Source: a virus | DNA length: 32,496 bases | Strand: one strand, 5' to 3' | Virus record (IMG/VR): IMGVR_UViG_3300027963_000206 | Location: 1-32,496 of that record | Part shown: piece by piece, positions 11,243 through 29,645 of the stretch | How the letters are laid out: every line of letters begins with the position of its first letter | Position numbering within the stretch: the first letter of the stretch is position 1 | Made by a program: the position numbers and the translations under genes | Notes under the pieces: generated by a model | What the model saw: the letters and a program-made list of their open reading frames with translations, nothing else | Databases searched by the model: none | What the model was told of the DNA's origin: nothing

Positions 11243-11533
11243 ATGGACAATTTATTTGAGTTATCAGTGGCTGGTCTTGCGACCTATAGAATAGCAAGGC
11301 TTATTGTTAAAGACGAGATATTCTCTAAATTAAGAAATGCAATTTGGAAAAAGTTTCCTCCAGAGAGATCTAAGTTTGGTTATCTATTTACCTGTATGTG
11401 GTGTACTGCAATTTGGGTCGCATCACTACTTGAAATATCACGTATCATTATCCCTAATGTAGTACATCCAGTAGAGGTTGTTCTAGCAATCTCTGCTATT
11501 GCTGGTTTGTTGGCTGCGTATGAAGAAAAGTGA
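11243..11533 (+). CDS. DUF1360-like membrane protein (96 aa)
   Basis: ATG at 11243 after GGAGGGGAAGAG. The pattern GLATYRIARLIVKDEIFSK, then FGYLFTCMWCTAIWVASLL, is that of DUF1360: L-A-YR-x-R-L-x2-D-x-I and the L-x-C-x-WC-T-x-W-V motif. Two hydrophobic segments follow (about 50-70 and 77-92). Proteins of this family occur beside portal genes in actinophages; their role is unknown. It overlaps the portal reading frame. Confidence 0.75.
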   Translation: MDNLFELSVAGLATYRIARLIVKDEIFSKLRNAIWKKFPPERSKFGYLFTCMWCTAIWVASLLEISRIIIPNVVHPVEVVLAISAIAGLLAAYEEK

Positions 11534-13301
11534 TAGTTCTTCTACTCCGCCACAGAGACGAGGAGTTTCAAGGGTGAGCGTTTTTAGACACCAAGAGCCA
11601 ATAGAGCCTACCCCTATTTCTGCTTCTGAAATTGTCCCAAAGAAAGTTAGAAAAAGAAAAAAGTCTACTACTCGTTCAACTCAGATAGTTAGAAACATTA
11701 AACCAAAACTTACAGGCGCTACTGGAATATTTATTTCCTCTAATGCTCAATCAGTTTCCTACTCAACACCTAGAACTTTAACTGCTGCTGCAGTACAAAT
11801 TAAAATTAATGATAAAGGCGAGTTTGAACAATTCAAACAACGTCGGTCTGCTGGATCTAGCGCATGGCAATCCGAAGCATGGGAATATTATGATGCTATT
11901 GGAGAAATAAAATATGCATTTAACTTAGTTGCTTCCGTTGTTTCTCGTATTCGTATCTACGCTGCTGCCATCGATAACGCTGCAGAAGCACCAGCACCAG
12001 TTGCGTTATCTAGTGTTATTGATCCGCGTTTAGCAGCCGCTGCGGAGAGAGCACTTGCTCGTTTAGATTCCGCTTATGGTGGACAAGCAGGACTTCTTCG
12101 TGATGCTGCATTAAACATTTCAGTTGCTGGTGAGTGCTATTTAGTTCAAATGCCAGAGCGTGTTGGTTCAGGAGTTCCAGAGTCTTGGGATATTAAATCT
12201 GTGGATGAGATAATGGCTGATACTCGCGGTGGATTTAATGTTGTTGGTCGCAGAGAACAAAGTATTGGTGGAGGTATGTCACCTAATAGTAAACTTTCTA
12301 AGAGTGCATTTGTAGGACGCATCTGGCGTTCACATCCTCGTTACTCAGATGAAGCAGATTCATCTCTTCGTGGCTTGCTAGATCTTTGCGCAGAACTTTT
12401 ACTTCTTAATAGAACATTCCGTGCTACAGCACGTTCACGCTTAAATGCTGGTGCACTTTATTTACCAGATGGCTTGTCAGTTGCAGCAGGTGGCGACCCA
12501 GATTATCCGTATGACACAGATAGTGAAGCCAACCCAGGATTTACTGCAGAAGAAGCAGAGGATGAGTTTGAAGAACAATTAATTGACGCTATGACAACTC
12601 CTATTCGTGATGAGGAGTCTGCTAGCGCAGTAGTTCCACTTATTATCCGCGGTCCTGCCGAACTTGGCGACAAGATTAAACAATTTAAGTTTGAGCGTTC
12701 ATTTGATCCAGCACTTGCTTCTCGCGCCGACAGAGTATTAGAGCGAATCCTTCAAGGACTAGATGTTCCTAAGGATGTTGTTACTGGTCTAGCAAATGTT
12801 AAGTATTCAAACGCACTTCAAATCGATGAGTCACTATATAAGGCACACATCGAACCATTAATGTTATTAATTGCTGATGCTTTAACAGTTGTTTACTTAC
12901 GCCCATACCTTAAGGCACAAGGATTTACTGAATCAGAAGTAGATCGAATTGTTGTTTGGTATGACCCTTCAGCAGTTGCTACTAGAAATGATAAAGCAGC
13001 CGATGCTGACTCAGGATTTGATCGTGGTGCTATTTCTTACGATTCATGGCGCCGTGCCCATGGATTCTCATCTATGGATGCACCAACACCAAATGAACTT
13101 GCTATCCGAATGCTTTCTGAAAAGGGAGCAATTAGCCCTGAGTTAACAGAAGCAATGTTAAACACTGTTGCTCCAGAAATGATGAACGCAGTTAGAGATA
13201 CACAGCAAGAAAATTCTGTTGCTCCTCTGCCACCAGAGGTAGAACAAGTTTTACAACAAGCAACACAACCCCCAACTGAGCAACAAGGAGTTACACAATG
13301 A
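11520..13301 (+). CDS. phage portal protein (593 aa)
   Basis: The protein forms the dodecameric ring at the capsid vertex through which DNA enters and leaves. Recognisable actinophage portal features are SSAWQSEAWEYYDAIGEIKY (about 117-136), FNLVASVVSRIRIYAA, ERILQGLDVPKDVVTGLANV (portal clip/stem region) and the C-terminal SYDSWRRAHGF. Residues 1-95 are basic and disordered (KKVRKRKKSTTRS). The first in-frame ATG is at 11520 and overlaps the DUF1360-like gene. A GTG at 11574, preceded by CGAGGAG at a good distance, is a strong alternative start that would remove 18 residues. The C-terminus is Gln/Pro-rich. Its stop overlaps the Dps-like gene by four bases. Confidence 0.9.
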   Translation: MKKSDSSSTPPQRRGVSRVSVFRHQEPIEPTPISASEIVPKKVRKRKKSTTRSTQIVRNIKPKLTGATGIFISSNAQSVSYSTPRTLTAAAVQIKINDKGEFEQFKQRRSAGSSAWQSEAWEYYDAIGEIKYAFNLVASVVSRIRIYAAAIDNAAEAPAPVALSSVIDPRLAAAAERALARLDSAYGGQAGLLRDAALNISVAGECYLVQMPERVGSGVPESWDIKSVDEIMADTRGGFNVVGRREQSIGGGMSPNSKLSKSAFVGRIWRSHPRYSDEADSSLRGLLDLCAELLLLNRTFRATARSRLNAGALYLPDGLSVAAGGDPDYPYDTDSEANPGFTAEEAEDEFEEQLIDAMTTPIRDEESASAVVPLIIRGPAELGDKIKQFKFERSFDPALASRADRVLERILQGLDVPKDVVTGLANVKYSNALQIDESLYKAHIEPLMLLIADALTVVYLRPYLKAQGFTESEVDRIVVWYDPSAVATRNDKAADADSGFDRGAISYDSWRRAHGFSSMDAPTPNELAIRMLSEKGAISPELTEAMLNTVAPEMMNAVRDTQQENSVAPLPPEVEQVLQQATQPPTEQQGVTQ

Positions 13302-13762: not shown

Positions 13763-14797
13763 ATGGCAAAGCAGTGGGCGCCCTCTAACTGGGCAAAAGA
13801 AGGTAGTAAGGATTATGTTCCTGTAACTACCTCTATTTCTGCTGCCGCTGGTTCAAAACCTGCCCCTAAAAAAGATCAAATAAAAGGCTCAAATAAAAAC
13901 TCTAAAGGATCTGCATCAGGTTCTCGTAAAGTTGTTTTTTCTAAAGCAGTAGAGAACTCTCTTAAAGAGAAAGTCTCTAATCATAACGAGAAAAGTCCTA
14001 AAGGAAGAAGAGCAACTTTAGGTATGTTAAAAGCAGTTTATCGTCGTGGCGCTGGAGCATTTTCTGTTTCTCATCGTCCTGGTATGAACCGTAATCAGTG
14101 GGCAATGGGAAGAGTAAATGCTTTTCTAAAACTACTTAAGTCTGGCAGACCAACAAATGCTGCTTATAAGTCAGACAATGATTTGCTACCATCTTCTCAT
14201 CCTCGTAGCACTAAAAAATCAAACTCTATTACTGCAGCAGGTTTAGTTCCTGAAGAACAAGATTTAGCAAATGCATTGATCGAGATCTCGCAGAAGTATG
14301 GAAAATTTAATGAAGACGAAGAAGGTATTTGGGCAGGCTACACGCCGCCAGCGGAAAATGAAGTTGCTTCTATTGGTGTTACTTGCGCCAATTGCGTTCT
14401 ATATGCTGGGGGTTCAAATTGTAAAATCATTGCTCTCCCAGTTGAGCCAACAGGAAAATGTAGATTTGCCGTAATACCTGACGGAGTTGTTAATGTAGAA
14501 AGCAGTAAAAATCTAACTGAAGTAAAAGATGAATTAGATGAGTACGTAATAGATCAAGAGTTAAATGTTCTACTAAAGAACAAAGAAGATTATGAAACTG
14601 TAGAAGATGCAATTTTTGCTATGACTGAGTATCTAGGTTATGGATATGAAGCAGAGCCTGCAATTAGAGCAAGTTGGTTAAGAGCAGTTAAAAATGGAGA
14701 AGATCCATTCTTAAGAGCATCACTTCTTGCTTCACTAGGAAAAGGTAGTTTAGATGCAGATTTGCTTCCAGTACTAGAAGAGGAGGATCAAGCATGA
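13763..14797 (+). CDS. virion-associated protein with RRGAGAFS/HP-R-S module and Cys motif (344 aa)
   Basis: ATG at 13763, 9 bases after the Dps stop. Residues 1-60 are basic and low-complexity. Residues 61-150 carry a module I recognise from many phage virion proteins: TLGMLKAVYRRGAGAFSVSH, NQWAMGRVNAFL, and DNDLLPSSHPRST. Residues 205-235 hold CANC...C...C (Cys208, 211, 220, 233), a possible Fe-S or zinc site similar in kind to that of the 21068 protein. The C-terminus is acidic and helical. The same DLLP-SHPRST segment opens the giant protein that follows, so the two probably share an assembly interface. The stop overlaps the next gene by four bases. Confidence 0.7.
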   Translation: MAKQWAPSNWAKEGSKDYVPVTTSISAAAGSKPAPKKDQIKGSNKNSKGSASGSRKVVFSKAVENSLKEKVSNHNEKSPKGRRATLGMLKAVYRRGAGAFSVSHRPGMNRNQWAMGRVNAFLKLLKSGRPTNAAYKSDNDLLPSSHPRSTKKSNSITAAGLVPEEQDLANALIEISQKYGKFNEDEEGIWAGYTPPAENEVASIGVTCANCVLYAGGSNCKIIALPVEPTGKCRFAVIPDGVVNVESSKNLTEVKDELDEYVIDQELNVLLKNKEDYETVEDAIFAMTEYLGYGYEAEPAIRASWLRAVKNGEDPFLRASLLASLGKGSLDADLLPVLEEEDQA

Positions 14798-17700
14798 GTA
14801 GAATAAGAAGAATTAGTTATGCCATCACTCCTGAAGGTCGTCGTGCTGTTGCTATTAAGCAAGCAGTAGATTTAAGAGATAAAGTTTTGTCAGTTGTAGA
14901 TAATGCTAACTTTTCAACATCTACTGCAAGAAAGATTACTAAAAAAGCTGCTTTTTCTGTAGTTATGCGCTCTTTAGAAGAGAGCAAAGGATTGCCACTA
15001 TCTCTTCGCGAGCACTTAGCAATGAAAGAACTTAATAAGTACATATCACTTGCTAAACATAATAAAAGTGATTTCTTCTACGCAACTAATACAGATTTAT
15101 TACCAATCTCTCACCCACGCTCAACTCGCGAGCATTCAATGACTGCTAGTGCATTAAGAATTGCACGCTCTCGTTGGTTTGCTGCTGATCCAAGGATTAC
15201 AGATGAAAGAGCAAAAGCAGTTCTTGCTTCAGCATTTGAATCAATACCAGGATCTGTAGAGCATCTTTACTACACTTCAATATTACTTTCACTTCCTCAA
15301 GGAATGATTCCAGGCGAGGCTTTAATTGCAGCATCTGATGGAAACTCTTTTGAGTCACGTAGTGCTCGTGCTAGACGTCAACGTCGTGATCGTAAAGGAA
15401 GATTTGCTTATGAAGGTGGAGGCATTCGTGCTCTCATTCGTCGCCTTGACGGAAATGTATTTAGTCTTAGTGGAAGAGTAGTTGCCAACGCTAAAAATAG
15501 TAAAGATGTAGAAGTAGAGTTTCCAGATGGAAAAATCGCTGAAATAAATCCTGCAAAAGGTGAATATATAAAAGCAGTTCTACCTACTCCAGATGGCTAC
15601 TCTCCTGAACCTATAATTCCAAGCGTAACTGATGAAGTTATAAATGAAAAAGATTTAGTATTTCTTGATGCCCCTAACGGCTGGGAAAAAGATGAAAAAT
15701 ATAAAGAGTTTGGCGATAAAGTAGAGAGATATGTAGATTCTAACAAAGAATTTGTAGTTTTTGTGTCTAAACAAGATGACGGTACAAAAGATTATCAAAT
15801 ACTAAACGCTAAGTCCGCTGAGCAAATTGGTGTAGTAAAGACTTGGGCAGATGTTCAAGACAGACTAGAAGGAAAAGAAGATCAGATACTAAATCCAGAA
15901 GCAAAACTTCCATTTAGACAAGGCTTAATTCCTGCTGAAGATAGACCAGGGCCAAATGCATATGAAAAACTTATGGCTGAGAAAAAGGATAAAGAAAACG
16001 CTCTTGCAAATCGTAAAGCAGAGTTAAAGAAGAATGCTGATGACAGAGTAGATGCTTTAGATCGGACTGTTCCTGAAGGCTGGGATATTGAAGAGAAAAA
16101 CAATGCCCTTATGTTACGCAGAGCAACAGAGCCAGCAGATTTAGAGAACGTATACAAGCAAGATAACTTTGTAGCAAGAGTTGTAGAGCAAGGCGAGATT
16201 TCAGTTAAAGATACAAATAATCTTTTGGAAGATAAGATTTATCAGAACTGGGCTTATGTAGAAAAAGATAAAGATGCAAGAGCTACAGAGTATGCTCGAA
16301 AGGCTCGTGAAGAGATCAAAAAATTTGCTCCTGCTTATGGGTATAAAGAAGAAGATTTAAACAAGATCGATTCAATGTCCGCCGATGAGATTGCTAATTT
16401 CTTTTTAGACGAAAAACTTCAACCAGAAGGATTTGCTAGTGCGTTAGATGACTATATGACTTCAGATATGGTTGATGCTCCTTCTCAACAACAACAAGCA
16501 AAGTGGAAAAGTTTTGGCGAGAAACTAAAAGTTATAAATGATGCTGGAGATTTCCCTGGCAATAATAAAAAGAAGGCAGATCTTCCTAAACAACCAGATG
16601 CTCCAGTTGAAACTAAAGGTGGCTTTGAATTTAACTACCCAGCTGGGGCGTATAAAATTAAGCAAGGTTCTGCGTATGATCCTCAAGGACGTGTGGATGA
16701 AGACAGCCCAGACTTTACAGATGATCCTATTGAACTTGCTCAAAAGCAAGATGAAAGAGACATACTTGCTGCATTAGAGCAAGCAGTTTCTCCAGGAGAA
16801 AACGGGGAGAATGCTTTAGGAGTAGGCGCTCTTCCTTTTGCTAAAGGCGATGAGTTTGTTCCTGCTGAAGCACTTTTCTTTGCTTTAGAAGAAGCAGGAA
16901 TTGATGCTCCTATGGAGTTAGCAAAGATTTATGATAAAAAACTTGGTGCTGATAACAATGAAAAAGCATTAAATGATTTTAGAAAGAAAGCAGAAATTAT
17001 TTCTGGCAATACTCCAGAACTTGCCGAGTCATTTAAAAAAGTTACAGAACAAAATCCTGATTTAGAGCCTCCTACTCAAGAACCAAAGTTTGATGCTAAA
17101 GAGATGGATTTGATTCCACTTCCTCCGCTTCTAGAAGGTCTTAGCCAAAAAGAGTTAGATCAATTTAATGAGACAAAAGATCACATTCCATACTTACCTA
17201 AAAATGAAGAGATTCAGATGCCAGAAGGCTATAACCCTCTTAGCCCAGAGCCATTTGCAGCATGGAAAGAAGTAACTGCAGAAAATCCTGATGCAATTCT
17301 TCCTGAAGGTTTCTCAGACAATCCTGTTTTCTTAGCACAAGAGATTGCTACAAATGATTTGTTAAAAGAGTTACGTCGATCTGTAGAGCCAGGCAATGAG
17401 GTTCCAGGCGCTGCTGTAATAGCACTTCCTACAGATGATGGGGAAGATTTTGTTGCAAACGTGCCAGGAGAAGCAGTTAGAGATGCTCTTCAACTTAAAG
17501 GCATAGACACTAACGCCGAGTTAAAGAAGATTGCTGAAGAAGGACTTCTTGGTCAAGCAGATGATTTAGCCGATGTAGAGATTCCTGCTGACGATGCTGT
17601 ACGTCTTATTGTTGATGGAGATGTCCCACTAGAGACTCAAATCAGAGAAGCAATTGCCGCTAAACAAAAAATTGCATTCCTTTACAACGGCACTGAGCGT

Positions 17701-20700
17701 TTAGTTCTTCCTGTAGAGGTATTTGAGAATCCTAGAAACTCAAATGTTAATGTAAGAGCAATTGATGCAAATGGAGATAGAAGAACATTTACTCTTAGCA
17801 AGATCGAGAACAGTAAAGAAGGTTCACCAGTAGCAGTCGAGATTACTGATAAAGAAATTTTTGATCGCCGTATGGCTGGAGAGTCATTACAAGACATTGC
17901 AGATGCTACAGGTATCCCTCGTGAAGAGATTCGCGCAAGAGAGGCTAAGTATGCTCGAGAGAATCCAGAAGCAAAGCCAGAAGCAGTTGTTGGAGACTAC
18001 AAACCTACTGCTGATCAAATAAATAAAATTCAAGAAGGTGTTGCAGAACTTGATTGGCTAGATAACGGCATTATGTTCTTAAAGCCTGATGATGGCGGTC
18101 CTCGTGCAGAAGCACCTATCGAAATCTATGACGATAATGGTTTACCAGAAGATGGCCCATTTGCAAAGATTGATTCAAATGGAAACTTTGAATGGAAAGA
18201 TCAAGCAGCATACGATAAATATGCTGATCGCTTAAAAGAAATTCTAGATGCTGACTTAGCAGGTATCGGCAATAATCAAGATAACCAACAACCAAAAGAA
18301 ATTGATAACGTGCCCGTTGAGCAGGCAAAACTTGATGATAATCAAGAGCCAAAAGATAAAAAATATGTAGAAGAGAACCCTGAAGTAATCAAGGTGAATG
18401 CTTTTGTTGAAGCAAATGCTGGACGTCTTGCTCCTACTAAAGCAAGAGATGTAAAAACTGGTGATTTCTTATGGAATAACTTTAATAAAGTATATGAAGA
18501 GATTCTTGATATTCAACCAGCACCTTTTGGTCGAGTTAGGTTTTTAATTAAAGATCCAAGAAATCAAAAAGAGTATTTCCGTTTCTTTGATCGTCGCTCT
18601 CCTATTCGTAATATGCGTCGTCTTGGTACTGGAGAGGTGCCTGAAGATTTTAGAGTTCCGCCAGAAGAGAATAAGGGCGATGGACCAAAGCGTGGTCGCG
18701 CTTTAAGACAACCACTAGAAAAAAGAGTTGAAGTAGTTGCTGGGCGTGATGTAGGTGGATTCGCATACAAAGAAGGCTTCTATAAAGATAAAAATGGAAT
18801 TGTTTTAAAACCTGGCGATAGAGTTCGTCATGGAAATGCAAAAAAGAATGAGATGTATGGCGAGGGTGTAGTTCTTGTTCGCGCTGGAGATCAGATTGAT
18901 GAAGCCAAAAAGGTTGGTGGAATTGGTCGTAACGGAAAAGTTTACAAAGACTATGTTTGGGTACAAATCCCTGGTGAAGACGGTCCACGTTTGTGGAAGT
19001 CAAGAATGATTGTTAAGCAAGCAGACGGCGCTGGTCCTGCTCGCGTTGCACCCGAGGTTAGAAATGTTGCACCAGATGCCCCTAAGGTAGAGGCCCCTAA
19101 AGCAGAACCAATAGCAGAAAAAGTTCCTAATGCTGCTGATATGAATGAGGAACTTGTTCAAAAAGAACTTAAGAGGGTTAGAGTTAAGTACTTCCCTAAA
19201 GCAAGAGATTACAAAGCAAACGATGAAGTTCGTGGCGCTGGTAAAAAACTGGATGAAGTAGTTAATAAATTAAATGCTGGAGAAAAAATAGAAGACCTTT
19301 CTACATCTCCTTTAGATTCAGCAATTCGTAAACTACGCAGGGTAAGAGATTTAGAAAATAATCCTAATGCATTAGTTCTTGCTGACTATGTAGAAAACTT
19401 TAAAAAAGAAATAGAAAAATACAAGGACGAAAAAGATAAAGAAAGACGCGCTGAGTATGAAAGAATATTAAACGAGCCAATACCAGATGACTTAATTCCA
19501 GCAAATGTAAACGCTCTTGATGAAGAAAAAATTAAAGAGGCTGTAAAGGTAATTTCTATAAAACTTCCTAAATGGAATGAAAGAGGCGCTAATCGTAAAG
19601 CAAGTGAGGCTGCTTACTACTTAGAGAGATTTGCTAAAGAAATGGATCAAGGTCAAGTGATTGAAGGAATTGACCCTGCTGATTTACTTCAAGTATCTAC
19701 ATACTTAAAAGACTCAGGGGATGCTAGATACGAGTCTTTGGGAGATAAGATAGATCAACTTAATGAACTTATTAAACAAAGACAAACTGCTAATCAAAAG
19801 CCTTTTGCTAAAGCAAACATGGAGTTTATTGATCCTGTTGCTGAAGCAGAAAAAAGAGTTAATAATAAAGATAATGAATTTGATGCCTCTAACAAACTAC
19901 GCTCTGCCTTTGCCTTAGATAAAATCTATCGAGATAACTCTTATCTAGAACCCCATAAAGAGCAATTAAAAGAATTCTTTGCTTTAGAAGGTGGTGCTTC
20001 TTTAGCAAAACTAGATCAAAAGGCTCGTCAGGCTTTAGCTCAATATGCAAGTCAAGAGATTAGGAATCCTGATGGAATGCAGGGTGCTGATGGCGCTGAG
20101 ACCGCAAAAAACATAAATGAAATTGCTACTTTAGTAAAAGCACTTCATGATGAAAAAATGGTTTACAGCCCAAATAGATCTAACATTGGACCAGCAGATG
20201 CTTTGCTAAACATAGATCCTACAAAGATTTTAAATTTTGGTAAGTCCCTTGATTCAGGAGTTCGTAAAAAATTAGTTATTGATGGAAACGATACTGGATT
20301 TGATATTCAAAGAGTTTCTCAAGGTATAAATAGCGGTAGCAACTTTAGACTTATACACAGACAAAGTGGTCAAGTTGTTTACTTTAAGAGAGAGAAAACA
20401 GAGGGAGCAGCTGATGCAGAGTATGTTTCTTCAAAGATAGCTCAGTCTCTAGGCATTGCAGGTGCAGCATATGTTCAAAAACATCCAAATGATTCTAGAA
20501 CAGTTATTATTACAAATGCTGGAGATGGAATAGACTTTAAAAATAAACCAGTGCTGTTTGACGAATTCCCTGGTAAATTTTCAATAGAGACTGTTGCTAA
20601 GAGAGCCTCTCTTGCAGATGTAGTTGGTTTAGCAGTACTTGATGCTGTTATCTACAATACTGATAGACATGTACAAAACTTTTTAGCAGGAGTGGTTGAC

Positions 20701-21057
20701 AATAAGGGTGTAGAAAAAAATGGTTATGAAGAAATACAACTTTTGCCAATTGATCATGGTTTTGCTCAACTTTTAAATGGTGCTGGTAGTAGAAGTATTA
20801 CAGATCCATTTACCCATATGAAGGGCAGAGATGCTAGATCAGGTGGAGAGATTAATAGGGCAGTGGCTAAACAAATTGGAGCAACTGCATACAAAGAATT
20901 AATAGACATGACCTCTCAACAAGCAATACAAGCACTAAAAAGAATGTATGGTTCTGACATTAGTAAAGCAACTTTAGACGAAGTTATTAGTCGTTTAGAG
21001 GCTCTAAAAGGTATAACTAAAGAAAAATGGCGTACTGGCTTAGCAGGAAGGGATTAG
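14794..21057 (+). CDS. giant multidomain virion protein with C-terminal kinase-like domain (2087 aa)
   Basis: ATG at 14794 after AGAGGAGG. Visible order: a DLLPISHPRST segment (101-111); a RDRKGRFAYEGG tag followed by an SH3-like barrel (about 197-270); long Glu/Lys-rich helical stretches; two degenerate 80-residue repeats starting near 639 and 837 (P-x2-F-x-D-x-P-x2-LAQ ... GID-x3-EL); a WYL-like segment (about 945-1010); a HTH-like segment (SLQDIADATGIPREEIRA, about 1020-1060); two further small barrels (about 1220-1290 and 1325-1410). The C-terminal 250 residues match the PI4K/HipA-type kinase fold: K1865 (VVYFKRE), E1876 (ADAEYVSSKIAQSLGI), the catalytic loop NTDRHVQNFL (D1957, N1962) and IDHG (D1987). 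It is encoded between portal and protease, so it is probably packaged. Its target is unknown. Confidence 0.75.
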   Translation: MSRIRRISYAITPEGRRAVAIKQAVDLRDKVLSVVDNANFSTSTARKITKKAAFSVVMRSLEESKGLPLSLREHLAMKELNKYISLAKHNKSDFFYATNTDLLPISHPRSTREHSMTASALRIARSRWFAADPRITDERAKAVLASAFESIPGSVEHLYYTSILLSLPQGMIPGEALIAASDGNSFESRSARARRQRRDRKGRFAYEGGGIRALIRRLDGNVFSLSGRVVANAKNSKDVEVEFPDGKIAEINPAKGEYIKAVLPTPDGYSPEPIIPSVTDEVINEKDLVFLDAPNGWEKDEKYKEFGDKVERYVDSNKEFVVFVSKQDDGTKDYQILNAKSAEQIGVVKTWADVQDRLEGKEDQILNPEAKLPFRQGLIPAEDRPGPNAYEKLMAEKKDKENALANRKAELKKNADDRVDALDRTVPEGWDIEEKNNALMLRRATEPADLENVYKQDNFVARVVEQGEISVKDTNNLLEDKIYQNWAYVEKDKDARATEYARKAREEIKKFAPAYGYKEEDLNKIDSMSADEIANFFLDEKLQPEGFASALDDYMTSDMVDAPSQQQQAKWKSFGEKLKVINDAGDFPGNNKKKADLPKQPDAPVETKGGFEFNYPAGAYKIKQGSAYDPQGRVDEDSPDFTDDPIELAQKQDERDILAALEQAVSPGENGENALGVGALPFAKGDEFVPAEALFFALEEAGIDAPMELAKIYDKKLGADNNEKALNDFRKKAEIISGNTPELAESFKKVTEQNPDLEPPTQEPKFDAKEMDLIPLPPLLEGLSQKELDQFNETKDHIPYLPKNEEIQMPEGYNPLSPEPFAAWKEVTAENPDAILPEGFSDNPVFLAQEIATNDLLKELRRSVEPGNEVPGAAVIALPTDDGEDFVANVPGEAVRDALQLKGIDTNAELKKIAEEGLLGQADDLADVEIPADDAVRLIVDGDVPLETQIREAIAAKQKIAFLYNGTERLVLPVEVFENPRNSNVNVRAIDANGDRRTFTLSKIENSKEGSPVAVEITDKEIFDRRMAGESLQDIADATGIPREEIRAREAKYARENPEAKPEAVVGDYKPTADQINKIQEGVAELDWLDNGIMFLKPDDGGPRAEAPIEIYDDNGLPEDGPFAKIDSNGNFEWKDQAAYDKYADRLKEILDADLAGIGNNQDNQQPKEIDNVPVEQAKLDDNQEPKDKKYVEENPEVIKVNAFVEANAGRLAPTKARDVKTGDFLWNNFNKVYEEILDIQPAPFGRVRFLIKDPRNQKEYFRFFDRRSPIRNMRRLGTGEVPEDFRVPPEENKGDGPKRGRALRQPLEKRVEVVAGRDVGGFAYKEGFYKDKNGIVLKPGDRVRHGNAKKNEMYGEGVVLVRAGDQIDEAKKVGGIGRNGKVYKDYVWVQIPGEDGPRLWKSRMIVKQADGAGPARVAPEVRNVAPDAPKVEAPKAEPIAEKVPNAADMNEELVQKELKRVRVKYFPKARDYKANDEVRGAGKKLDEVVNKLNAGEKIEDLSTSPLDSAIRKLRRVRDLENNPNALVLADYVENFKKEIEKYKDEKDKERRAEYERILNEPIPDDLIPANVNALDEEKIKEAVKVISIKLPKWNERGANRKASEAAYYLERFAKEMDQGQVIEGIDPADLLQVSTYLKDSGDARYESLGDKIDQLNELIKQRQTANQKPFAKANMEFIDPVAEAEKRVNNKDNEFDASNKLRSAFALDKIYRDNSYLEPHKEQLKEFFALEGGASLAKLDQKARQALAQYASQEIRNPDGMQGADGAETAKNINEIATLVKALHDEKMVYSPNRSNIGPADALLNIDPTKILNFGKSLDSGVRKKLVIDGNDTGFDIQRVSQGINSGSNFRLIHRQSGQVVYFKREKTEGAADAEYVSSKIAQSLGIAGAAYVQKHPNDSRTVIITNAGDGIDFKNKPVLFDEFPGKFSIETVAKRASLADVVGLAVLDAVIYNTDRHVQNFLAGVVDNKGVEKNGYEEIQLLPIDHGFAQLLNGAGSRSITDPFTHMKGRDARSGGEINRAVAKQIGATAYKELIDMTSQQAIQALKRMYGSDISKATLDEVISRLEALKGITKEKWRTGLAGRD

Positions 21058-21067
21058 GAGATAAAAA

Positions 21068-21844
21068 ATGGCTATAGAAATATTTAGAGCATACGTAAAC
21101 TCTGACCTGCCTATTCAAGATGGAGATCATATATTTTCCATTATTGCTTCTGATACTGATGTTGCTTACGCTGCACCACAAGAGGTTATAGATTCATATG
21201 GTCTTACTCAAGAAAGAATTGATATGGCAAAAGATTTATACGCAGCTTCTGGTGTAGAAATGCCTACAACACCAACCGACTGGGCAGTGCTCGCTTCAGA
21301 AAACATGAGCAAAATATCTGTTATGCCTTTTGATATATCAGAACCTTACGACACAATTGAGCAAGCAGTTATTGACGAGACTAGTGATGCTCAAGACTCA
21401 TTAGAAATAAGAAATGAAAATCAATCAGTAGAACCCGTAACTGCTGCTGCACCAGATGCTTGTCCTCCTGCAACACAAGATATCTCCATCAATCTTGCTA
21501 ACCGCGAGAAGGCAATTAAAGATGCTGCTTATGGTCCACTAAATCCAGCAGAACCAAATGAAGAGTTTTGGCAAGAAAAATCAACACGCTGGTCTATAAC
21601 AATAGATGAAGCAAAAAAGTCACGTTGCGGAAACTGCGTAATGTTTATTACAACTACTAAAATGAAAGACTGCATTGCTCAAGGCATTGAGCAAGGTGGA
21701 TCAAGTAAAGATAACGCTTGGGACGCTGTAGATGCTGCTGAACTTGGTTACTGCGAAGCATTTGATTTTAAATGCGCCGCTTCCAGGACTTGTAACGCTT
21801 GGGTTGCAGGTGGTCCAATTGATGACTCTAAGGCAAAGGAGTAG
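21068..21844 (+). CDS. Cys-rich virion-cassette protein (258 aa)
   Basis: ATG at 21068 after TTAGGAGATAAAA. The N-terminal 130 residues are mixed alpha/beta without a motif, then a Pro/Ala linker. The C-terminal 80 residues hold RCGNCVMF (Cys187, 190), MKDCIAQG (202), and GYCEAFDFKCAASRTCNAWV (229, 236, 242), ending AGGPIDDSKAKE. This CGNC ... GYCEAFDFKCAASRTC-AWV-GGPI block recurs in virion proteins of phages of this type. The spacing would suit an Fe-S cluster or structural zinc. Role unknown; co-translation with the giant protein suggests a structural part. Confidence 0.7.
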   Translation: MAIEIFRAYVNSDLPIQDGDHIFSIIASDTDVAYAAPQEVIDSYGLTQERIDMAKDLYAASGVEMPTTPTDWAVLASENMSKISVMPFDISEPYDTIEQAVIDETSDAQDSLEIRNENQSVEPVTAAAPDACPPATQDISINLANREKAIKDAAYGPLNPAEPNEEFWQEKSTRWSITIDEAKKSRCGNCVMFITTTKMKDCIAQGIEQGGSSKDNAWDAVDAAELGYCEAFDFKCAASRTCNAWVAGGPIDDSKAKE

Positions 21845-22148: not shown

Positions 22149-25100
22149 TTGCAATTTATAGGTCGTAGTGGGAATAACGCCTTATTTGTGCTTGAAAACA
22201 AGGCTGTAGTAATTGACGAGAAAAGAAATTTAGTTTCTTCTATTGACTATGCAGATGCGCTTATTGCCTCTTTCACTCTTGATGATAGCCAAGAGAATCC
22301 ATCCTCTGTTACTTACGAGTTAGCAACCGCTGCAATATCAGATTTAGATATAAAAATTTTTTCAAATAATGACCGTTTATACACAATTCCAAAATCAGTT
22401 CAGTCAGAGGCAAAACGTGCCTTAGAGTGGCGTAAAAAGCATGATCGCGGTGGCACATCGGTAGGTTTAAATACTGCTAGAACTCTTGCTCGTGGTGGTC
22501 AAATTGGTATTAGAAAAATTCGTCACATCGCTAAGTACTTCCCTCGTCATCAAGTAGATAAAAAAGGAAAAGGCTACGAGCCTTCAGAACCTGGCTATCC
22601 TTCAAATGGACGCATCGCTTGGGCTCTTTGGGGTGGAGATGCTGCTGAACGCTGGGCCAGTGCAATAGTTGCCCGTGAAAATAAAAAAGCTCAGGCTAAC
22701 TCAATTACTGCTTCATATAAATTTGTTATGGCTGATTATGAGTCTCCAGAAAAGGTAGAACTCAACTCTTTCATAGAATCAGAGATGTTGCTAGAAGATA
22801 TGGCTCCTCAATTCTTCATTCGTATTCGTTTAGATGGTACTGGCATTGATCGCTTATATAAAGTAAATACAGACGGATCAGTCTTTGTTTGGGACGATGC
22901 AATGTGGGAAGATCTTGGAAATATTAACTATGATTTTTACACTTACGATAAAAGCCTCGATGATCCCTATGACATGGTTGAGAAAATACATGTTCCTGTA
23001 GACACAGAAACTGCAATTATTGTTTCAGGAAACTTAGACTCTAATCCTATGAAATCAATTTCTATATCTCAAATTAATCAAGAAGAGTCTGACATATTTG
23101 TAGATGAGATGGATAAAATTGATTGGGATTTAATTAATGAGATTTCTTATGATGAAAATATGTATAGCGAGTATGAGGAGTTTTCAGACTCTTCTTTAAC
23201 TGCTGCCACTGCTCCGACAGCAGGAACTCCTGTAACTAATCAAGATGGAAATTACACTCCAGAAGAGCGCTCTCAGAAAGCACGTTCTCAGGTAAGAGAT
23301 GCTATAGGTAAGTTTGCCAAGTCTGGTGGACGAGTTGTTATTGGTAAAAAGCCAGAGTATTCAGGAACTATTGAATCTATTAACCCTGCTACTCAAAGCG
23401 TTAAGGTTAAGTTAGATAATGGAAATTATGTTGATGTTCCTGCTAATACTACAGAGCCTGCAGATACTTTTAAACCACTTCCACAAGAAAAAACTTTAAC
23501 ATCTACTAAGCAACTTACTAAAGGAATTTTAGGAGAGCCTAGAGTTCCTATTGATTCCCCTAATGCCACTCTTCCTGGAAAACTTCCTCAATTAAACACT
23601 GCTCAAGTTCAAACAATATTAAATGATCTTCCAGCGTGGAGCACTGATCAAAGATTAAAAGCATCTTCTCCTAGCGCTCCTACGGCTGTTAGCACAGAAA
23701 CAAAAACTCCTAATGCTTATAACGATCCAAGTTTAAGAAAGTTTTTAGAGAAAAAAGTTGTAGTAAATGGAGAAACTACTTATCCTAATTCAATTTGGTA
23801 TCAACCAAAAGTAGATCCTTCTTCAATAGAAGGCTACAAGCCAACTAAAGACTTAACTCCTTCCCCTGGATTAAAAGTTCCACCTGCTTTTCGACAACCT
23901 GCTAAAGGTCTTACCTCTGCTGCATCTGTAGCATTAACGCCAGATACTTCAGATGTTCCACCAATTTATATGGCAATTGTTTCACCTGATGACCCTCAAG
24001 CGGTAATGGAATTAGTTTCATTAATACCTACTAGTAAAGACTCTGTTGTAACTTCCACATGGAAGCGTAAGCCAGGAGTATGGGAAAAAGATGACTCAAT
24101 TCTTTCTGATTTAAAGAGTCCTACACCTCCACCAGTTGTTGTCTTAGATGATGACACCTTAAAAATAGTTTTGGATCAAATAGATTCAGCTGCTAAAACT
24201 GCATCTGCATATATTACAGATTCAATAATTTCTTCCTTAATTGCTGCTGGAGGAATTGACCGTAACAAAGGAAATGCTGAAAAACTTCGTCGTTATTGGT
24301 TATATGGAAAAGGTGCAGCAAAAATTCGTTGGAATACCGCAGGTGATTGGACCCGCTGCGTTCGCCAACTTTCAAAATACATGGGTCCTCGAGCAAAAGG
24401 CTACTGTGCATTGCGTCATAAAGAAGCAACTGGCATGTGGACTGGAGATAAGGAGCATCGTCAACTTTATGGCAAAAAAGGAGTTAGAGCGGACGCGTTT
24501 AGCACAGATTTTATACTTCCTTCTGAAGCCATACTCGAAGCAACCTCTCTTAAAGCAAGAGCAGCGGATGCCAGAAACAGAGTTGTCTTAGCAGGAGCAG
24601 AGATAGAAGATTTTAAAGGAGCAGAGTTTGTTATTCCTTTAGTTATCCCAGAAGACATAGAGTCTGGAGATGGTCGTAAGTTTGAAAAAGGCGCTATTAC
24701 TATGCGTGAACTTCCTCTTCCATTTTTATGGCAAATTAAGACTGGCGAGGGTCATTCTGGATCAGTTGTAATTGGAACAATTCTTCAGATGGAAAGAGTA
24801 GAACAAGGTATTGGAAATGCCAGAGGATATTTTGATACTGGAGAATACGGAAAAGAAGCGGAAAGATTAGTTCGTGGAGGCTTCATCCGTGGAGTTTCTG
24901 CTGATATGGACATGTTTGAAGCAGATGAAGAAAAAGAAAATGCTGAAAATGACTCTAACAAAAAAGTTGGAGCAGGTAAAATGAACATAACTAAGGCAAG
25001 GGTTATGGCTGTAACTCTTGTCCCCAAGCCCGCTTTTCAGGAATGTCGAGTAGAACTCGCAGACCAAAGCGGAGAAATGCAGGAGGAAGAAGTGATATCT

Positions 25101-27341
25101 GATGGAGTGTATGTCGAAGGATTAAATCCTTTAGACGCATCAGCGTTAGTAGCGTGTGGAATTGTGGCTGGGTCAATACCAGTTACTCCACCGAAAGATT
25201 GGTTTGCTAACCCAAAATTAAAAAAACCAACCGCACTAACAGTAACTGATGAAGGTCAAGTGTATGGTCACATTGCTGCATGGCATGTAGATCATATTGG
25301 AATGTCTTATGGAACTCGTCCTCCTCGGAGTAAGAGCAGTTATGCATACTTCCACACTGGTGCTGTACGTGCTGACGATGGAACAGATGTTCCAGTTGGA
25401 CAATTAACTTTAGCTGGAGGACATGCTTCTCTTGAAGCAAGTGCTTCAGAAGCAGTTCGTCATTATGACGACACAGCATCTGCAGTAGCAGATGTACATG
25501 CTGGAGAAGATGCTTATGGCATCTGGGTTTCAGGAGCACTTCGCCCTGGCACAACTCCAGAACAAATTCGTGCTTTACGTGCCTCTGCTCCGTCAGGAGA
25601 TTGGAGACCAATTAAAGGTGCTCTAGAACTTGTAGCAATTTGTCAGGTAAATGTTCCTGGCTTCCCAATTGCCCGTGCTCGTGTTGCATCAGGTCAAGTT
25701 ATGGCACTTGTTGCTGCTGGCGCAAGCGTTCTTGCTCAACTAAAGAATGATCCTCTAGCAGAGTTACATACTCGAATTGATAAACTAGAAGCACCATTAA
25801 TTGCGGCTAGTAATAGTGCTAAAGATAGAATGAGAACAATTACTGCTGCTATTAAAGCATCTGAATTATCTAATAGAGTAAATAAGATGAAAGAAGAATC
25901 TTCTTCTTATATGCTTCAAAATATTGATAACTCAGATTCAGAGTTAGCAGTCATTACTCGCAAACAACGTATGGAATTAGCAAAAGATAAAAAAGCACTT
26001 CCAGATGGGTCATTCCCAATTAGAAATGTTTCTGATCTAAAAAATGCTGTTCATGCATATGGACGTGCTAAGCCAGGAAATCGTGGTTTGGTTCGCCGTC
26101 ATATTGTAAAGATGGCTCGTCAATTAGATCGAAAAGATCTAATTCCAGAGAACTGGAAAGAAGCATCCGTAAACGATACAGATAGTATTGCTGCTAGTTT
26201 AAGAGCAAGAATCTCTATTGTTGAATCAGTTGTTGCCGCTGGCGGTTTGGATCGTAACCGGGGAAACGCTGAAACGCTCCGTCGCTACTGGACAAGAGGC
26301 GAAGGAGCTGCAAAAATCCGTTGGGGAGCACCTGGTGATTGGAGTAGATGCGTAAAGCATTTATCAAAATATCTAGGTCCTCGTGCTAAGGGTTACTGTC
26401 AACTTCGTCATAAAGATGCTTTAGGTATTTACACTGCAACACATGCTAAGCGTGATAGAGCTAAGAATAATTCTGTAGAAGAATTTTCTAGTGACTATAT
26501 GCCAGAAACAATGGAGCAGATGGAGATTCCACAGGATCAACTACAAATGCCTGTAAGCAAAATTATTCAACAACCAGATGATCTATATGACGCTCAATGG
26601 GAGCCAGAAGATGCAATTGTTGTCATTTTAAATGAAATGGGAGAGGCTTCAGAAGCAGATTTTTTAGCCAATTCTGAAACATTTGCTGAAAAAGATCCTT
26701 ATGTAGTAGATCAAAGTGGGCCTGTTGGTACACCTGATTTAACAAAAGAAGATCTAAAAGGTCTTACAGATGAAGAAACAGATATACTAAAAAAAGAAGT
26801 TAAGAGTAAGCAAGACGCAGAAAAGTCCAGAGCTAAATACACACCTAAAACCCAACCCCGTGATGCCACAGGGAAGTTTCGACAAGTGCTTGCTCGGTTG
26901 AAACTGGACTTAGGTGATGCTGGATCAGATGCTGCATTAAAGAAGATTGAAGAGGTTGATAATCTAGATAATGCTGGTAACTACGCTGAAGCAGCCAAGG
27001 CTGCTGGCGATTTGCTAGATATTGTAGATAGATTAGATACAGGAGCACTTAACGCTGAGGCTATAGGCAATGTTAGAAACAGTGCTGGAGAATTAGGCAA
27101 GGTTATTGCTAACCTACCTTTTGCCTTTGGAGAAGATGCTCAGAAGATCAGATTTAGTGATGTACCACCTGCCCTACAGGATCTAATGGAAAAAATGATC
27201 ACTAGGGTTGAGAATAAAATTGGTCAAAAAGACGCAGATATTGCTACTAAAGGTATGAAGGACTTTATGTCAGGTCAAGAGGTCTACAGCCAGAGCGAGA
27301 TATCTAGTCAAATGTCTAAGTTACTTAGACTACTTACCTAA
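22149..27341 (+). CDS. capsid maturation protease polyprotein (S78-like prohead protease; 1730 aa)
   Basis: TTG start at 22149 after ACGGAG. Order of modules: RGGT/RHQ/LWGGD domain (about 78-178); RDAIGKF tag and SH3-like barrel (about 383-435); Pro-rich linker; GG-DRN-GNAE-LRRYW module copy 1 (701-771); prohead protease (about 800-960) with His869 in EGHSGSV and Ser917 in RGVSADMD, 48 apart as in HK97-type proteases; an actinophage extension (GHIAAWHVDHIGMSYG ... VNVPGFPIARARVASG, about 1020-1200); a DUF6582-like module (ALPDGSFPIRNVSDL, about 1267-1340); module copy 2 (1365-1435); RDATGKF tag and C-terminal helical domain ending MSKLLRLLT. It cleaves scaffold and capsid parts during head maturation. 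A length of 1730 is far beyond the 200-600 usual for the protease alone. Confidence 0.87.
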   Translation: MQFIGRSGNNALFVLENKAVVIDEKRNLVSSIDYADALIASFTLDDSQENPSSVTYELATAAISDLDIKIFSNNDRLYTIPKSVQSEAKRALEWRKKHDRGGTSVGLNTARTLARGGQIGIRKIRHIAKYFPRHQVDKKGKGYEPSEPGYPSNGRIAWALWGGDAAERWASAIVARENKKAQANSITASYKFVMADYESPEKVELNSFIESEMLLEDMAPQFFIRIRLDGTGIDRLYKVNTDGSVFVWDDAMWEDLGNINYDFYTYDKSLDDPYDMVEKIHVPVDTETAIIVSGNLDSNPMKSISISQINQEESDIFVDEMDKIDWDLINEISYDENMYSEYEEFSDSSLTAATAPTAGTPVTNQDGNYTPEERSQKARSQVRDAIGKFAKSGGRVVIGKKPEYSGTIESINPATQSVKVKLDNGNYVDVPANTTEPADTFKPLPQEKTLTSTKQLTKGILGEPRVPIDSPNATLPGKLPQLNTAQVQTILNDLPAWSTDQRLKASSPSAPTAVSTETKTPNAYNDPSLRKFLEKKVVVNGETTYPNSIWYQPKVDPSSIEGYKPTKDLTPSPGLKVPPAFRQPAKGLTSAASVALTPDTSDVPPIYMAIVSPDDPQAVMELVSLIPTSKDSVVTSTWKRKPGVWEKDDSILSDLKSPTPPPVVVLDDDTLKIVLDQIDSAAKTASAYITDSIISSLIAAGGIDRNKGNAEKLRRYWLYGKGAAKIRWNTAGDWTRCVRQLSKYMGPRAKGYCALRHKEATGMWTGDKEHRQLYGKKGVRADAFSTDFILPSEAILEATSLKARAADARNRVVLAGAEIEDFKGAEFVIPLVIPEDIESGDGRKFEKGAITMRELPLPFLWQIKTGEGHSGSVVIGTILQMERVEQGIGNARGYFDTGEYGKEAERLVRGGFIRGVSADMDMFEADEEKENAENDSNKKVGAGKMNITKARVMAVTLVPKPAFQECRVELADQSGEMQEEEVISDGVYVEGLNPLDASALVACGIVAGSIPVTPPKDWFANPKLKKPTALTVTDEGQVYGHIAAWHVDHIGMSYGTRPPRSKSSYAYFHTGAVRADDGTDVPVGQLTLAGGHASLEASASEAVRHYDDTASAVADVHAGEDAYGIWVSGALRPGTTPEQIRALRASAPSGDWRPIKGALELVAICQVNVPGFPIARARVASGQVMALVAAGASVLAQLKNDPLAELHTRIDKLEAPLIAASNSAKDRMRTITAAIKASELSNRVNKMKEESSSYMLQNIDNSDSELAVITRKQRMELAKDKKALPDGSFPIRNVSDLKNAVHAYGRAKPGNRGLVRRHIVKMARQLDRKDLIPENWKEASVNDTDSIAASLRARISIVESVVAAGGLDRNRGNAETLRRYWTRGEGAAKIRWGAPGDWSRCVKHLSKYLGPRAKGYCQLRHKDALGIYTATHAKRDRAKNNSVEEFSSDYMPETMEQMEIPQDQLQMPVSKIIQQPDDLYDAQWEPEDAIVVILNEMGEASEADFLANSETFAEKDPYVVDQSGPVGTPDLTKEDLKGLTDEETDILKKEVKSKQDAEKSRAKYTPKTQPRDATGKFRQVLARLKLDLGDAGSDAALKKIEEVDNLDNAGNYAEAAKAAGDLLDIVDRLDTGALNAEAIGNVRNSAGELGKVIANLPFAFGEDAQKIRFSDVPPALQDLMEKMITRVENKIGQKDADIATKGMKDFMSGQEVYSQSEISSQMSKLLRLLT

Positions 27342-27509: not shown

Positions 27510-29645
27510 GTGGACCAAATCAAACAAATGATGGATCAGTTGTCTGACATCACTGACGAACAAGTTAGTGAACTTCAGGCATCTATCCTCAGCGAATTTG
27601 AATCGGTCGAGAAGGAGGATCCTACTCCGCAGACAGTTGACGCTATGACGTCACTTGCCGACATGCTCGATGGAGTTAGAAACGAAATCAAGCGTCGTGA
27701 GGTAGCAACTGTAGAACTTGCTCAAAAAGCAGCAGAAGCAACTAATCGCGTATACGGAAAAGAAGACGAAAATAAAGACATGGAAACTACTGAAGTTAAA
27801 GATGCTGCAATGCATGAAGAGGCTCCTGCCGCTCCTGCTGAAGAAGCACCTGTAACTGAAGAAGCACCTGTTTCTGAAACTCCTGCCCCAACCATGGAAG
27901 AGGAGAAAAAAATGGAAGAAGCAGCAGCAATGCCTGCAACTCCAGAAGTTACTCCAGAAGTAGAAGATGAAAAATCTCCTGCAGACATGGAAGAAGACAA
28001 AAAGGAAGAAAAGGAAATGGAAAAAACTATGACTGAAGCGTCAACCGAAGCAGATAAGAAATCTGAATTTTCGACTGAAGTTAAAGAAACAACTGAAGCA
28101 GCAGTAGCTGTGGAAGAAACAGTTGTTGCAGCTGCTGAAGAAGCACCAGCAACAACAACAGCAGAAGTACCAGTAGTAGCAGAAGCAGCAGTTGTAGAAG
28201 AGGTAGCAGTATCGCAAGATGCTCCTGCAGCTGAAGCAGCAGTTGTTGTTACTGAAGGTGCTGAAGCAGCAATCATTGAAACACCAACACAAACAGAAAC
28301 TGTGCAAACAGCACAAGAAACTATGGAGGCACCCGTGACCGCCGCTGCAGATAACGCAGATAACCTCAACATTGAGGTACCGGCTGACCGCCGCCCAACA
28401 TCTCGGACAACAGAAGCAACAGTGGCAATCACTGCGGGCGCTGACATTCCTGGATATACAGCAGGCAGCTCAATTTCAAGCATGGCAGAAGTTGCAGAAG
28501 CAATGGCCAAGCGTCTACATGGCCTACGCCGTGTAAATGGTGGAGATGGAGAACAACACATTGTTGCTTCTATCTCTACACAATTTCCAGAGGCTCGCAC
28601 CCTTAATCAGGATGCACAAGCTAACTGGGACAAGGTACAAGCTGTAGTCGGACCTGAGGCACTTGTTGCTTCTGGTGGACATCAAGCACCTTTCGAGGTT
28701 AAGTACGACATCTTCGGTCTTGGCTCAGCAGTGCGCCCAGTCCGTGATTCTCTACCTCGTTTCCAAGCAGACCGTGGCGGTATTCGCTACATCACTCCAC
28801 CAGTACTTAGCTCATATGCTAGCGCTGTTGGTGTATGGACTGCTGCTAACGATTCAGCAGAAACACCAAGCCCAGCTTCAAAGTTGAGCTTAACTGTAGC
28901 CGCAGCTGCTGAGACAACTGTCTCAACTGATGCTGTTACTTTGCAACTACAATTCGGTAACCTTCTAAGCCGTGCATATCCTGAATTAATCGCTCGTCAC
29001 AACGAGCTTGGTTTGATTCAACATGCTCGCGAGGCTGAAGGAAATCTTATGGCAAAAATCGGTTCAGCATCAACAGCCGTTACTTCAACTTCCGTAATTG
29101 GAATGGGTCGTGACTTCCTAGTTCAACTAGGTCGTGCTTCTGCTGCTTACCGTGCACGTCACCGTCTAGATGCAGATGCTCCACTTCGCGCAATTATCCC
29201 AGCATGGGTTAAAGACGCAATGGCAGCTGATCTAACTTTAAATATGCCTGGAGATTCAACTCTAAATGCATATGCAGAGATTGATGGCTACATTGCAGCT
29301 CGCGGAATCAACGCTACATTTGCTCTAGATACTGCAGCAGGAGCTTCTCCTTTTGCAGCACAGAGCTCTGGCGCAATGAATGAGTTCCCAGATACATTCG
29401 TTTGGTACATCTTTGCTGAAGGATCATTCTTGTTCCTTGATGGCGGCACTTTGGATCTTGGAGTTATCCGTGACTCAACACTTGTCGGCACCAACGACTA
29501 CAAGATGTTCGTTGAAACCTTTGAGAACGTTGCCCTTGTTGGCGTCGAGTCTCTACAGGTAACATCAACCATCAATGTAAACGGAGTAGCAGCCGCTCTT
29601 CGCGATACACTTGGTGGATTGACTGCAGCAACAATCGAGTACTAA
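27510..29645 (+). CDS. HK97-type major capsid protein with long acidic N-terminal (scaffold-like) extension (711 aa)
   Basis: GTG start at 27510 with AAGGAGG upstream. Residues 1-83 are helical and charged (IKQMMDQLSDITDEQVSELQ ... MTSLADMLDGVRNEIKRRE), as in scaffold or delta domains. Residues 84-290 are low-complexity Glu/Ala/Val/Pro, with Met-rich acidic stretches (MEEEKKMEEAAAMPA). From about 305 the capsid fold begins (DIPGYTAGSSISSMAEVAEA), with DIFGLGSAVRPVRDSLPRFQ, FGNLLSRAYPELIARHN, LRAIIPAWVKDAM and FVWYIFAEGSFLFLDGGTLD. No separate scaffold gene is seen, so the extension probably plays that role and is removed by the upstream protease. The mature protein would be about 400 residues, normal for the family. 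Confidence 0.88.
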   Translation: MDQIKQMMDQLSDITDEQVSELQASILSEFESVEKEDPTPQTVDAMTSLADMLDGVRNEIKRREVATVELAQKAAEATNRVYGKEDENKDMETTEVKDAAMHEEAPAAPAEEAPVTEEAPVSETPAPTMEEEKKMEEAAAMPATPEVTPEVEDEKSPADMEEDKKEEKEMEKTMTEASTEADKKSEFSTEVKETTEAAVAVEETVVAAAEEAPATTTAEVPVVAEAAVVEEVAVSQDAPAAEAAVVVTEGAEAAIIETPTQTETVQTAQETMEAPVTAAADNADNLNIEVPADRRPTSRTTEATVAITAGADIPGYTAGSSISSMAEVAEAMAKRLHGLRRVNGGDGEQHIVASISTQFPEARTLNQDAQANWDKVQAVVGPEALVASGGHQAPFEVKYDIFGLGSAVRPVRDSLPRFQADRGGIRYITPPVLSSYASAVGVWTAANDSAETPSPASKLSLTVAAAAETTVSTDAVTLQLQFGNLLSRAYPELIARHNELGLIQHAREAEGNLMAKIGSASTAVTSTSVIGMGRDFLVQLGRASAAYRARHRLDADAPLRAIIPAWVKDAMAADLTLNMPGDSTLNAYAEIDGYIAARGINATFALDTAAGASPFAAQSSGAMNEFPDTFVWYIFAEGSFLFLDGGTLDLGVIRDSTLVGTNDYKMFVETFENVALVGVESLQVTSTINVNGVAAALRDTLGGLTAATIEY

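What the first reader, a model, noticed from the sequence alone, without database searches (positions are those of the whole stretch)
14794..21057. A 2087-residue virion-cassette protein ending in a PI4K/HipA-type kinase-like domain
The last 250 residues keep the ordered kinase signature: K1865, E1876, NTDRHVQNFL (D1957, N1962) and IDHG (D1987), all key catalytic and metal-binding positions. The gene lies between portal and protease, where MuF-type and effector-bearing head proteins are found. A packaged kinase could be ejected with the DNA and modify host proteins at once, or act in head assembly. The fold assignment is from motif pattern; packaging and function are inference.
Basis: partly seen in the sequence, partly recalled or inferred. 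Interest (0 to 1): 0.85.

Follow-up and report, generated by a model that had tools for sequence, protein, structure and literature searches.

The report
Phage head-region protein with kinase-like tail
A virus of actinobacteria carries, among its head-building genes, a giant modular protein that ends in a well-preserved kinase-like enzyme domain; it is probably packaged and delivered into the host cell as an effector, but neither packaging nor kinase activity has been shown.

Summary
In detail: ORF 14794-21057 encodes 2087 aa, and K1865, E1876, D1957, N1962 and D1987 stand where stated. The five residues are invariant in 12 sequences (down to 37% identity), Pfam PI3_PI4_kinase matches every member scanned (best E 1.7e-6), and the predicted model's nearest solved structure is the HipA-like kinase CtkA. 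The model is of moderate confidence (pLDDT 61), weak at the catalytic loop. dN/dS of the domain is 0.07-0.16 in close relatives. The protein is modular: orthologues keep the N-terminus and the C-terminal kinase; three insert a DEDDh (RNase_T) exonuclease. Phage DSL-LC01 and L029 instead carry an ART-like segment and a second, remotely similar kinase-like domain; in Gordonia phages Forza and GodonK that second type lies directly after the portal gene. The C-terminal block is exchanged as a mosaic between otherwise 85-90% identical genomes. A motif (RDxxGKF) is shared with the head-protease protein. Best reading: a polyvalent-type virion effector with a PI4K/HipA-like kinase. Fold: well supported; packaging and injection: inferred; substrate: unknown. 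MuF is not supported. Kinases between portal and capsid genes are precedented ('Gratiaviridae'), so this is a new variant of a known kind.

The parts
14794..21057 (+). 2087-aa multidomain head-cassette protein
   Evidence: ORF and translation; full-length homologues in IMG/VR
14780..14786 (+). Shine-Dalgarno-like GAGGAGG; start codon overlaps the upstream stop (ATGA)
   Evidence: sequence
14836..15156 (+). N-terminal DUF5824-like region (residues 15-121), paralogous to the upstream gene
   Evidence: match to 13919-14245, E 6e-6; the upstream gene is PF19141 at 3e-7
15385..15405 (+). RDRKGRF motif (residues 198-204), also present twice in the head-protease protein
   Evidence: 3 observed in 16 window genes, 0.0086 expected by shuffling
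16630..17010 (+). Acidic module copy 1 (residues 613-739), conserved in phage DSL-LC01
   Evidence: 45% identity over 130 aa
17212..17547 (+). Acidic module copy 2 (residues 807-918), diverged copy
   Evidence: aligns to the same DSL-LC01 segment
17620..17823 (+). Small beta-barrel-like module (SH3/WYL-like by eye; not significant), residues 943-1010; it changes place among homologues
20275..21054 (+). PI4K/HipA-like kinase domain (residues about 1828-2087)
   Evidence: PF00454; invariant K1865/E1876/D1957/N1962/D1987; model and Foldseek
19001..21500 (+). Approximate block replaced by a divergent allele in L017 (flanks 82-93% identical); in L026 the block begins near 17500
   Evidence: sliding nucleotide identity; amino-acid identity by region
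11499..13301 (+). Portal protein
   Evidence: phrog_776 1e-107; 848 phage records match, nearly all actinobacteriophages
13763..14797 (+). DUF5824 protein, paralogue of the N-terminus of the kinase protein
   Evidence: PF19141 3e-7
22149..27341 (+). 1730-aa protein with head-maturation protease region; carries the RDxxGKF motif twice
   Evidence: PHROG head maturation protease/portal families, Peptidase_S78 E 0.01, motif
27510..29645 (+). Major head protein
   Evidence: phrog_777 2e-77
5693..6223 (+). Dual-specificity phosphatase; possible counterpart of the kinase (speculative)
   Evidence: PF00782 9e-11; present in 7 of 7 kinase-type-A relatives tested

Best explanation
The gene encodes a polyvalent-type head protein of an actinobacteriophage. 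Its conserved N-terminal third (DUF5824-like region and RDxxGKF motif) most likely anchors it in or directs it to the prohead. Its variable middle and its C-terminal PI4K/HipA-like kinase are effector modules that leave the head with the DNA and modify host molecules, probably proteins, at the start of infection. Shown here: the ORF, the kinase signature and its conservation, purifying selection, modular domain gain, block exchange of the C-terminus, and head-cassette synteny. Inferred: catalytic activity, packaging, ejection and target.
For: Kinase: PF00454 in 9 of 9 members, best 1.7e-6, one match over Pfam's cut-off in a genome search; K, E, D, N and D invariant in 12 sequences down to 37% identity; PDB search headed by HipA-like CtkA, E 8e-4, prob 0.98; viral search finds PI3K/PI4K-annotated and ART-annotated phage proteins and GodonK gp67. 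Purifying selection, dN/dS 0.07-0.16. Effector-like modularity: RNase_T exonuclease inserted in L070/L071/L072; an ART-like segment plus type-B kinase in DSL-LC01 and L029; C-terminal block exchange between otherwise similar genomes. Head link: portal-to-capsid position, RDxxGKF shared with the protease protein, and type-B kinase genes directly after the portal in Gordonia Forza and GodonK.
Against: No virion proteomics. AF2 mean pLDDT is 61 and the catalytic-loop region is below 50; Foldseek TM-scores are about 0.3. The window protein scores below the Pfam cut-off (22.1 v 27.1). Head-gene position also fits an assembly role or a late-infection role. The type A-type B link is weak (hhalign E 6e-4 over the N-lobe only).
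Confidence: 0.6

Rival explanations
1. The kinase acts inside the producing cell late in infection, for example on the host envelope or against competing phages (superinfection exclusion), as proposed for HipA-like kinases encoded between portal and capsid genes in 'Gratiaviridae'.
For: Same gene position and a similar kinase type in a published case (PMC8008677); head genes are usually expressed late.
Against: The published case also has a glycosyltransferase and an AAA ATPase just upstream, which are not seen here; here the kinase ends a 2087-aa protein whose N-terminal region is 89-100% identical among relatives and which shares a motif with the protease protein.
Confidence: 0.17
2. The protein is a head-assembly or maturation factor; the kinase phosphorylates virion proteins or is an ATP-binding structural domain.
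For: Lies between portal and protease; the N-terminal region is the best conserved part; the upstream gene carries a related region.
Against: C-terminal block exchange and gain of an exonuclease or replacement by ART-like domains are typical of effectors, not of assembly factors.
Confidence: 0.15
3. The fold is kinase-like but the reaction is not protein phosphorylation: lipid or small-molecule phosphorylation, AMPylation or another transfer, or a pseudokinase. (This overlaps with the best explanation on delivery and differs on chemistry.)
For: Best Pfam match is the PI3/PI4 lipid/protein kinase family; Legionella MavQ lipid kinase is among weaker Foldseek hits; the substrate cannot be read from sequence.
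Against: A pseudokinase would not be expected to keep all five catalytic positions. Nothing here excludes the other reactions.
Confidence: 0.25

Closest known systems
Polyvalent proteins of phages and conjugative elements (Iyer et al. 2017, PMC5512222)
   Same: Large multidomain phage protein in a portal-terminase head cassette; unrelated enzymatic domains mixed in one chain (kinase, exonuclease, ART-like in relatives)
   Different: That paper's kinases are a Ser/Thr/Tyr-type group with a lost C-terminal subdomain; HipA and PI3 are not mentioned in it. No MPTase, ArdC-N or other hub domain found here
HipA-like kinase of 'Gratiaviridae' gut phages (Benler et al. 2021, PMC8008677)
   Same: HipA-type kinase encoded between portal and major capsid genes
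   Different: Gut phages with an AAA ATPase and glycosyltransferase next to the kinase; not reported as the end of a 2000-aa head-type protein; proposed role is superinfection immunity
Type-B kinase-like domains of Gordonia phages Forza gp78, GodonK gp67 and phage DSL-LC01
   Same: Large protein directly downstream of the portal (Forza, GodonK); conserved K, E, D..N and DxGG positions
   Different: GSNxGG loop and NWD...DN instead of DRHxxN; only remote sequence similarity; often joined to an ART
PI3_PI4_kinase (PF00454) / HipA_C (PF07804) / CtkA
   Same: DRHxxN catalytic loop, IDxG metal motif, ordered K and E; CtkA is the best structural match
   Different: Sub-threshold score for the window protein; not a stand-alone enzyme; no HipB-like partner was looked for
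MuF polymorphic toxins (PMC5576092)
   Same: Gene close downstream of the portal, variable C-terminal region
   Different: No MuF domain found; the C-terminus diverges but keeps one kinase type within the clade
HSTV-2 gp16 (archaeal tailed virus)
   Same: PF00454 match 1.5e-5, gene in the head cassette three genes after the capsid gene; the genome also has a dual-specificity phosphatase
   Different: 490 aa, archaeal virus, no further similarity shown

Membership tests
PI3_PI4_kinase (PF00454) superfamily | Score above Pfam's gathering cut-off | tested here: inconclusive
   Window domain 22.1 v 27.1 bits; all 9 members match, best E 1.7e-6; L026 orthologue 28.3 bits in a genome search but 25.0 as a whole protein
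PI3_PI4_kinase (PF00454) superfamily | Catalytic loop DRHxxN and metal-binding IDxG, Lys and Glu upstream | tested here: met
   Invariant in 12 homologues
PI3_PI4_kinase / HipA-like kinase fold | Bilobed kinase fold | tested here: inconclusive
   N-lobe order strands-helix-strands at pLDDT 60-90, catalytic region below 50; Foldseek top hits kinases, best E 8e-4 to CtkA
HipA toxin family | Significant similarity to HipA | tested here: not met
   HipA_C best E 0.012, below cut-off; hhalign to E. coli HipA P 0.06, though the catalytic loop aligns in register
Polyvalent proteins | Two or more functionally unrelated domains in one chain | tested here: met
   In orthologues: RNase_T plus kinase. In the window protein itself only the kinase has an assigned enzymatic function
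Polyvalent proteins | Encoded in a phage with a portal-terminase packaging cassette | tested here: met
   Portal, protease and major head protein adjoin
Polyvalent proteins | Packaged in the virion and delivered to the host | not testable with these tools
   Needs virion proteomics and delivery assays
MuF proteins | MuF domain (PF04233 or PF06152) | tested here: not met
   No match at E up to 1 in Pfam
MuF proteins | Gene immediately downstream of the portal | tested here: not met
   Two genes lie between (13298-13753, 13763-14797)

The most novel reading that the evidence does not exclude
A virion-borne PI4K/HipA-type kinase is ejected with phage DNA into actinobacteria and reprogrammes host proteins at once; its C-terminal block is swapped between phages in an arms race, and the phage's own dual-specificity phosphatase reverses or tunes its action.
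Probability: 0.2. Interest if true: 0.8.

Novelty: new variant of a known kind. Interest (0 to 1): 0.58.

Why it matters
Delivered enzymes such as T4 Alt show that phages can reprogramme a host before any phage gene is expressed. A delivered atypical kinase would add phosphorylation to that set, in phages of environmental actinobacteria whose infection biology is little known. A second kinase-like type lies at the same place in cultured Gordonia phages, which makes packaging and activity directly testable.

Tried and rejected
Kinase relatives in bacterial genomes: none in genome contigs. Direct tblastn of the kinase in named phages: nothing convincing. Sequence search of PDB with the kinase profile: no kinase; the AcrF8 hits (E 0.05-0.9) cover only the N-lobe strands and are taken as chance. 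NCBIfam: no family. The 943-1010 module as a WYL domain: PDB profile hits Sac7d 0.23 and WYL protein 0.68, not significant. MuF membership rejected. A first model from 9 sequences was poorer (pLDDT 52). The match of type B to a surface-layer protein (E 4e-4) is spread over four weak stretches of a repeat protein and is not taken as homology. Virion proteomics for HSTV-2 gp16: none found in the open papers searched.

Full report
Observation. ORF 14794-21057 is intact, starts with ATG behind GAGGAGG, and overlaps the upstream stop codon by ATGA. The ordered signature occurs once in the protein and in none of 20,000 shuffles, and the five positions are invariant in 12 homologues, where 70 of 305 columns are invariant (P = 6e-4 for all five). 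The cassette is portal, Dps/ferritin-like gene, DUF5824 gene, this gene, two small genes, protease-containing protein, major head protein.

Phage and host. The portal matches 848 phage records, nearly all of actinobacteria; the best is phage DSL-LC01 (77%), and Gordonia phage Phendrix follows among those listed (42%). The window is itself an IMG/VR virus record. That the host is an actinobacterium is inference from this; GC is 40%.

Kinase domain. Pfam PI3_PI4_kinase matches the isolated domain at 1.7e-4 and all nine aligned members, best 1.7e-6; the window domain is below the curated cut-off, and an orthologue passes it in one of two scorings. HipA_C is a weaker match. Homologues at 37-50% identity keep K1865, E1876, D1957, R1958, H1959, N1962, I1986, D1987, H1988 and G1989. 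AlphaFold2 with 12 sequences gives pLDDT 61 and pTM 0.62: a confident N-terminal helix pair and a beta-rich N-lobe (four strands, a long helix, two strands), then a long helix, a low-confidence catalytic region and a moderately confident helical end. Foldseek against PDB is headed by HipA-like CtkA (E 8e-4, prob 0.98) and the rest of the list is kinases, with low TM-scores. Against viral models the best include PI3K/PI4K-annotated HSTV-2 gp16, ART-annotated phage proteins and Gordonia GodonK gp67.

Selection and mosaicism. Against close relatives the domain has dN/dS 0.07-0.16, like the rest of the protein. Against L017 residues 1-1020 are 82-94% identical, 1021-1500 are 77%, 1501-1790 only 34% and the kinase 53%. 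Nucleotide identity is 82-93% on both sides but largely undetectable from about 19,000 to 21,500. In L026 the divergent block begins near 17,500. So the C-terminal part is exchanged as a block while a kinase of the same type is kept.

Modularity. L070, L071 and L072 are 2707-2926 aa (open-frame lengths) and carry an RNase_T exonuclease domain (5e-16 to 6e-14, above cut-off) in the middle, with the kinase still at the end. DSL-LC01 (3289 aa) and L029 share the N-terminal region and an acidic module, but carry an ART-like segment (by eye; no Pfam hit) and a second kinase-like domain, 'type B', with GSNxGG, YxK, E, NWD...DN and RxDxGG. Type B occurs in Gordonia, Pseudomonas, Yersinia, Aeromonas, Morganella and Enterobacter phages, and in Forza gp78 and GodonK gp67 it is in the gene directly after the portal. 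Dolphis gp117 carries a Pfam ART (1e-7) in the same chain. Types A and B are linked by hhalign over the N-lobe with K and E in register (E 6e-4; 1.6e-3 with the larger alignment) and by Foldseek; common ancestry is likely but not proven.

Link to the head. RDxxGKF occurs in this protein and twice in the protease protein; three in 16 genes against 0.009 expected. Orthologous pairs in other contigs show the same motif. It is not seen in the Forza or GodonK regions. It might be a targeting or processing signal; that is speculation. The N-terminal region is the most conserved part and is paralogous to the upstream DUF5824 gene.

Mechanism. Best reading: head-anchored N-terminus, effector middle and end, delivered with the DNA. 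Effector-like swapping with retained catalytic residues and cassette synteny are the main support. Packaging, delivery, activity and substrate are not shown. Rivals are late action in the producing cell (as proposed for 'Gratiaviridae', PMC8008677), an assembly role, and a non-protein substrate.

Known versus new. Polyvalent proteins (PMC5512222) are the nearest class; HipA and PI3 are not mentioned there. A HipA-like kinase between portal and capsid genes is published for 'Gratiaviridae'. What is added is a family of 2000-2900-aa head-cassette proteins with a constant PI4K/HipA-like C-terminus, exonuclease insertion and block exchange, and a second kinase-like type at the same place in cultured phages. 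MuF is not supported. Hence a new variant of a known kind.

Noticed in passing
window 5693-6223: Dual-specificity phosphatase (PF00782, 9e-11), present in 7 of 7 type-A kinase relatives and not found in DSL-LC01, L029 or Forza; HSTV-2, with a PF00454 head-cassette protein, also has one.
   Followed up: partly
window 13298-13753: Dps/ferritin-like protein (PF00210, 3e-15) right after the portal; alignment to L017 and L026 breaks here, so it may be absent or replaced there.
   Followed up: partly
L070:1288-9456, L071:1345-9465, L072:655-9432: DEDDh exonuclease (RNase_T) domain inside orthologues of the kinase protein.
   Followed up: yes
window 13763-14797 and 21068-21844: Both genes flanking the kinase gene carry Cys-rich CxNC...C...C stretches; a DSL-LC01 gene just downstream of the homologous protein is annotated high potential iron-sulfur protein.
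   Followed up: no
window 22149-27341: 1730-aa protease protein with a repeated RNxxNAExLRRYWxxGxGAAKIRW module (phrog_6439, two stretches) and two RDxxGKF motifs.
   Followed up: partly
window 4042-4614: HslV/proteasome-subunit-like peptidase (phrog_1040 3e-25; PF00227 2e-4) in a phage.
   Followed up: no
L001:16525-17604: ART-like segment next to a type-B kinase-like domain in DSL-LC01; type-B matches in Pseudomonas, Aeromonas and Yersinia phages lie in genes annotated as ADP-ribosyltransferase.
   Followed up: partly
window 17620-17823: About 65-aa module (QxxxAIxxxxxIxFxYxGxxRxVxP) that changes position among homologues and is present twice in DSL-LC01; SH3/WYL-like by eye, not significant.
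   Followed up: partly
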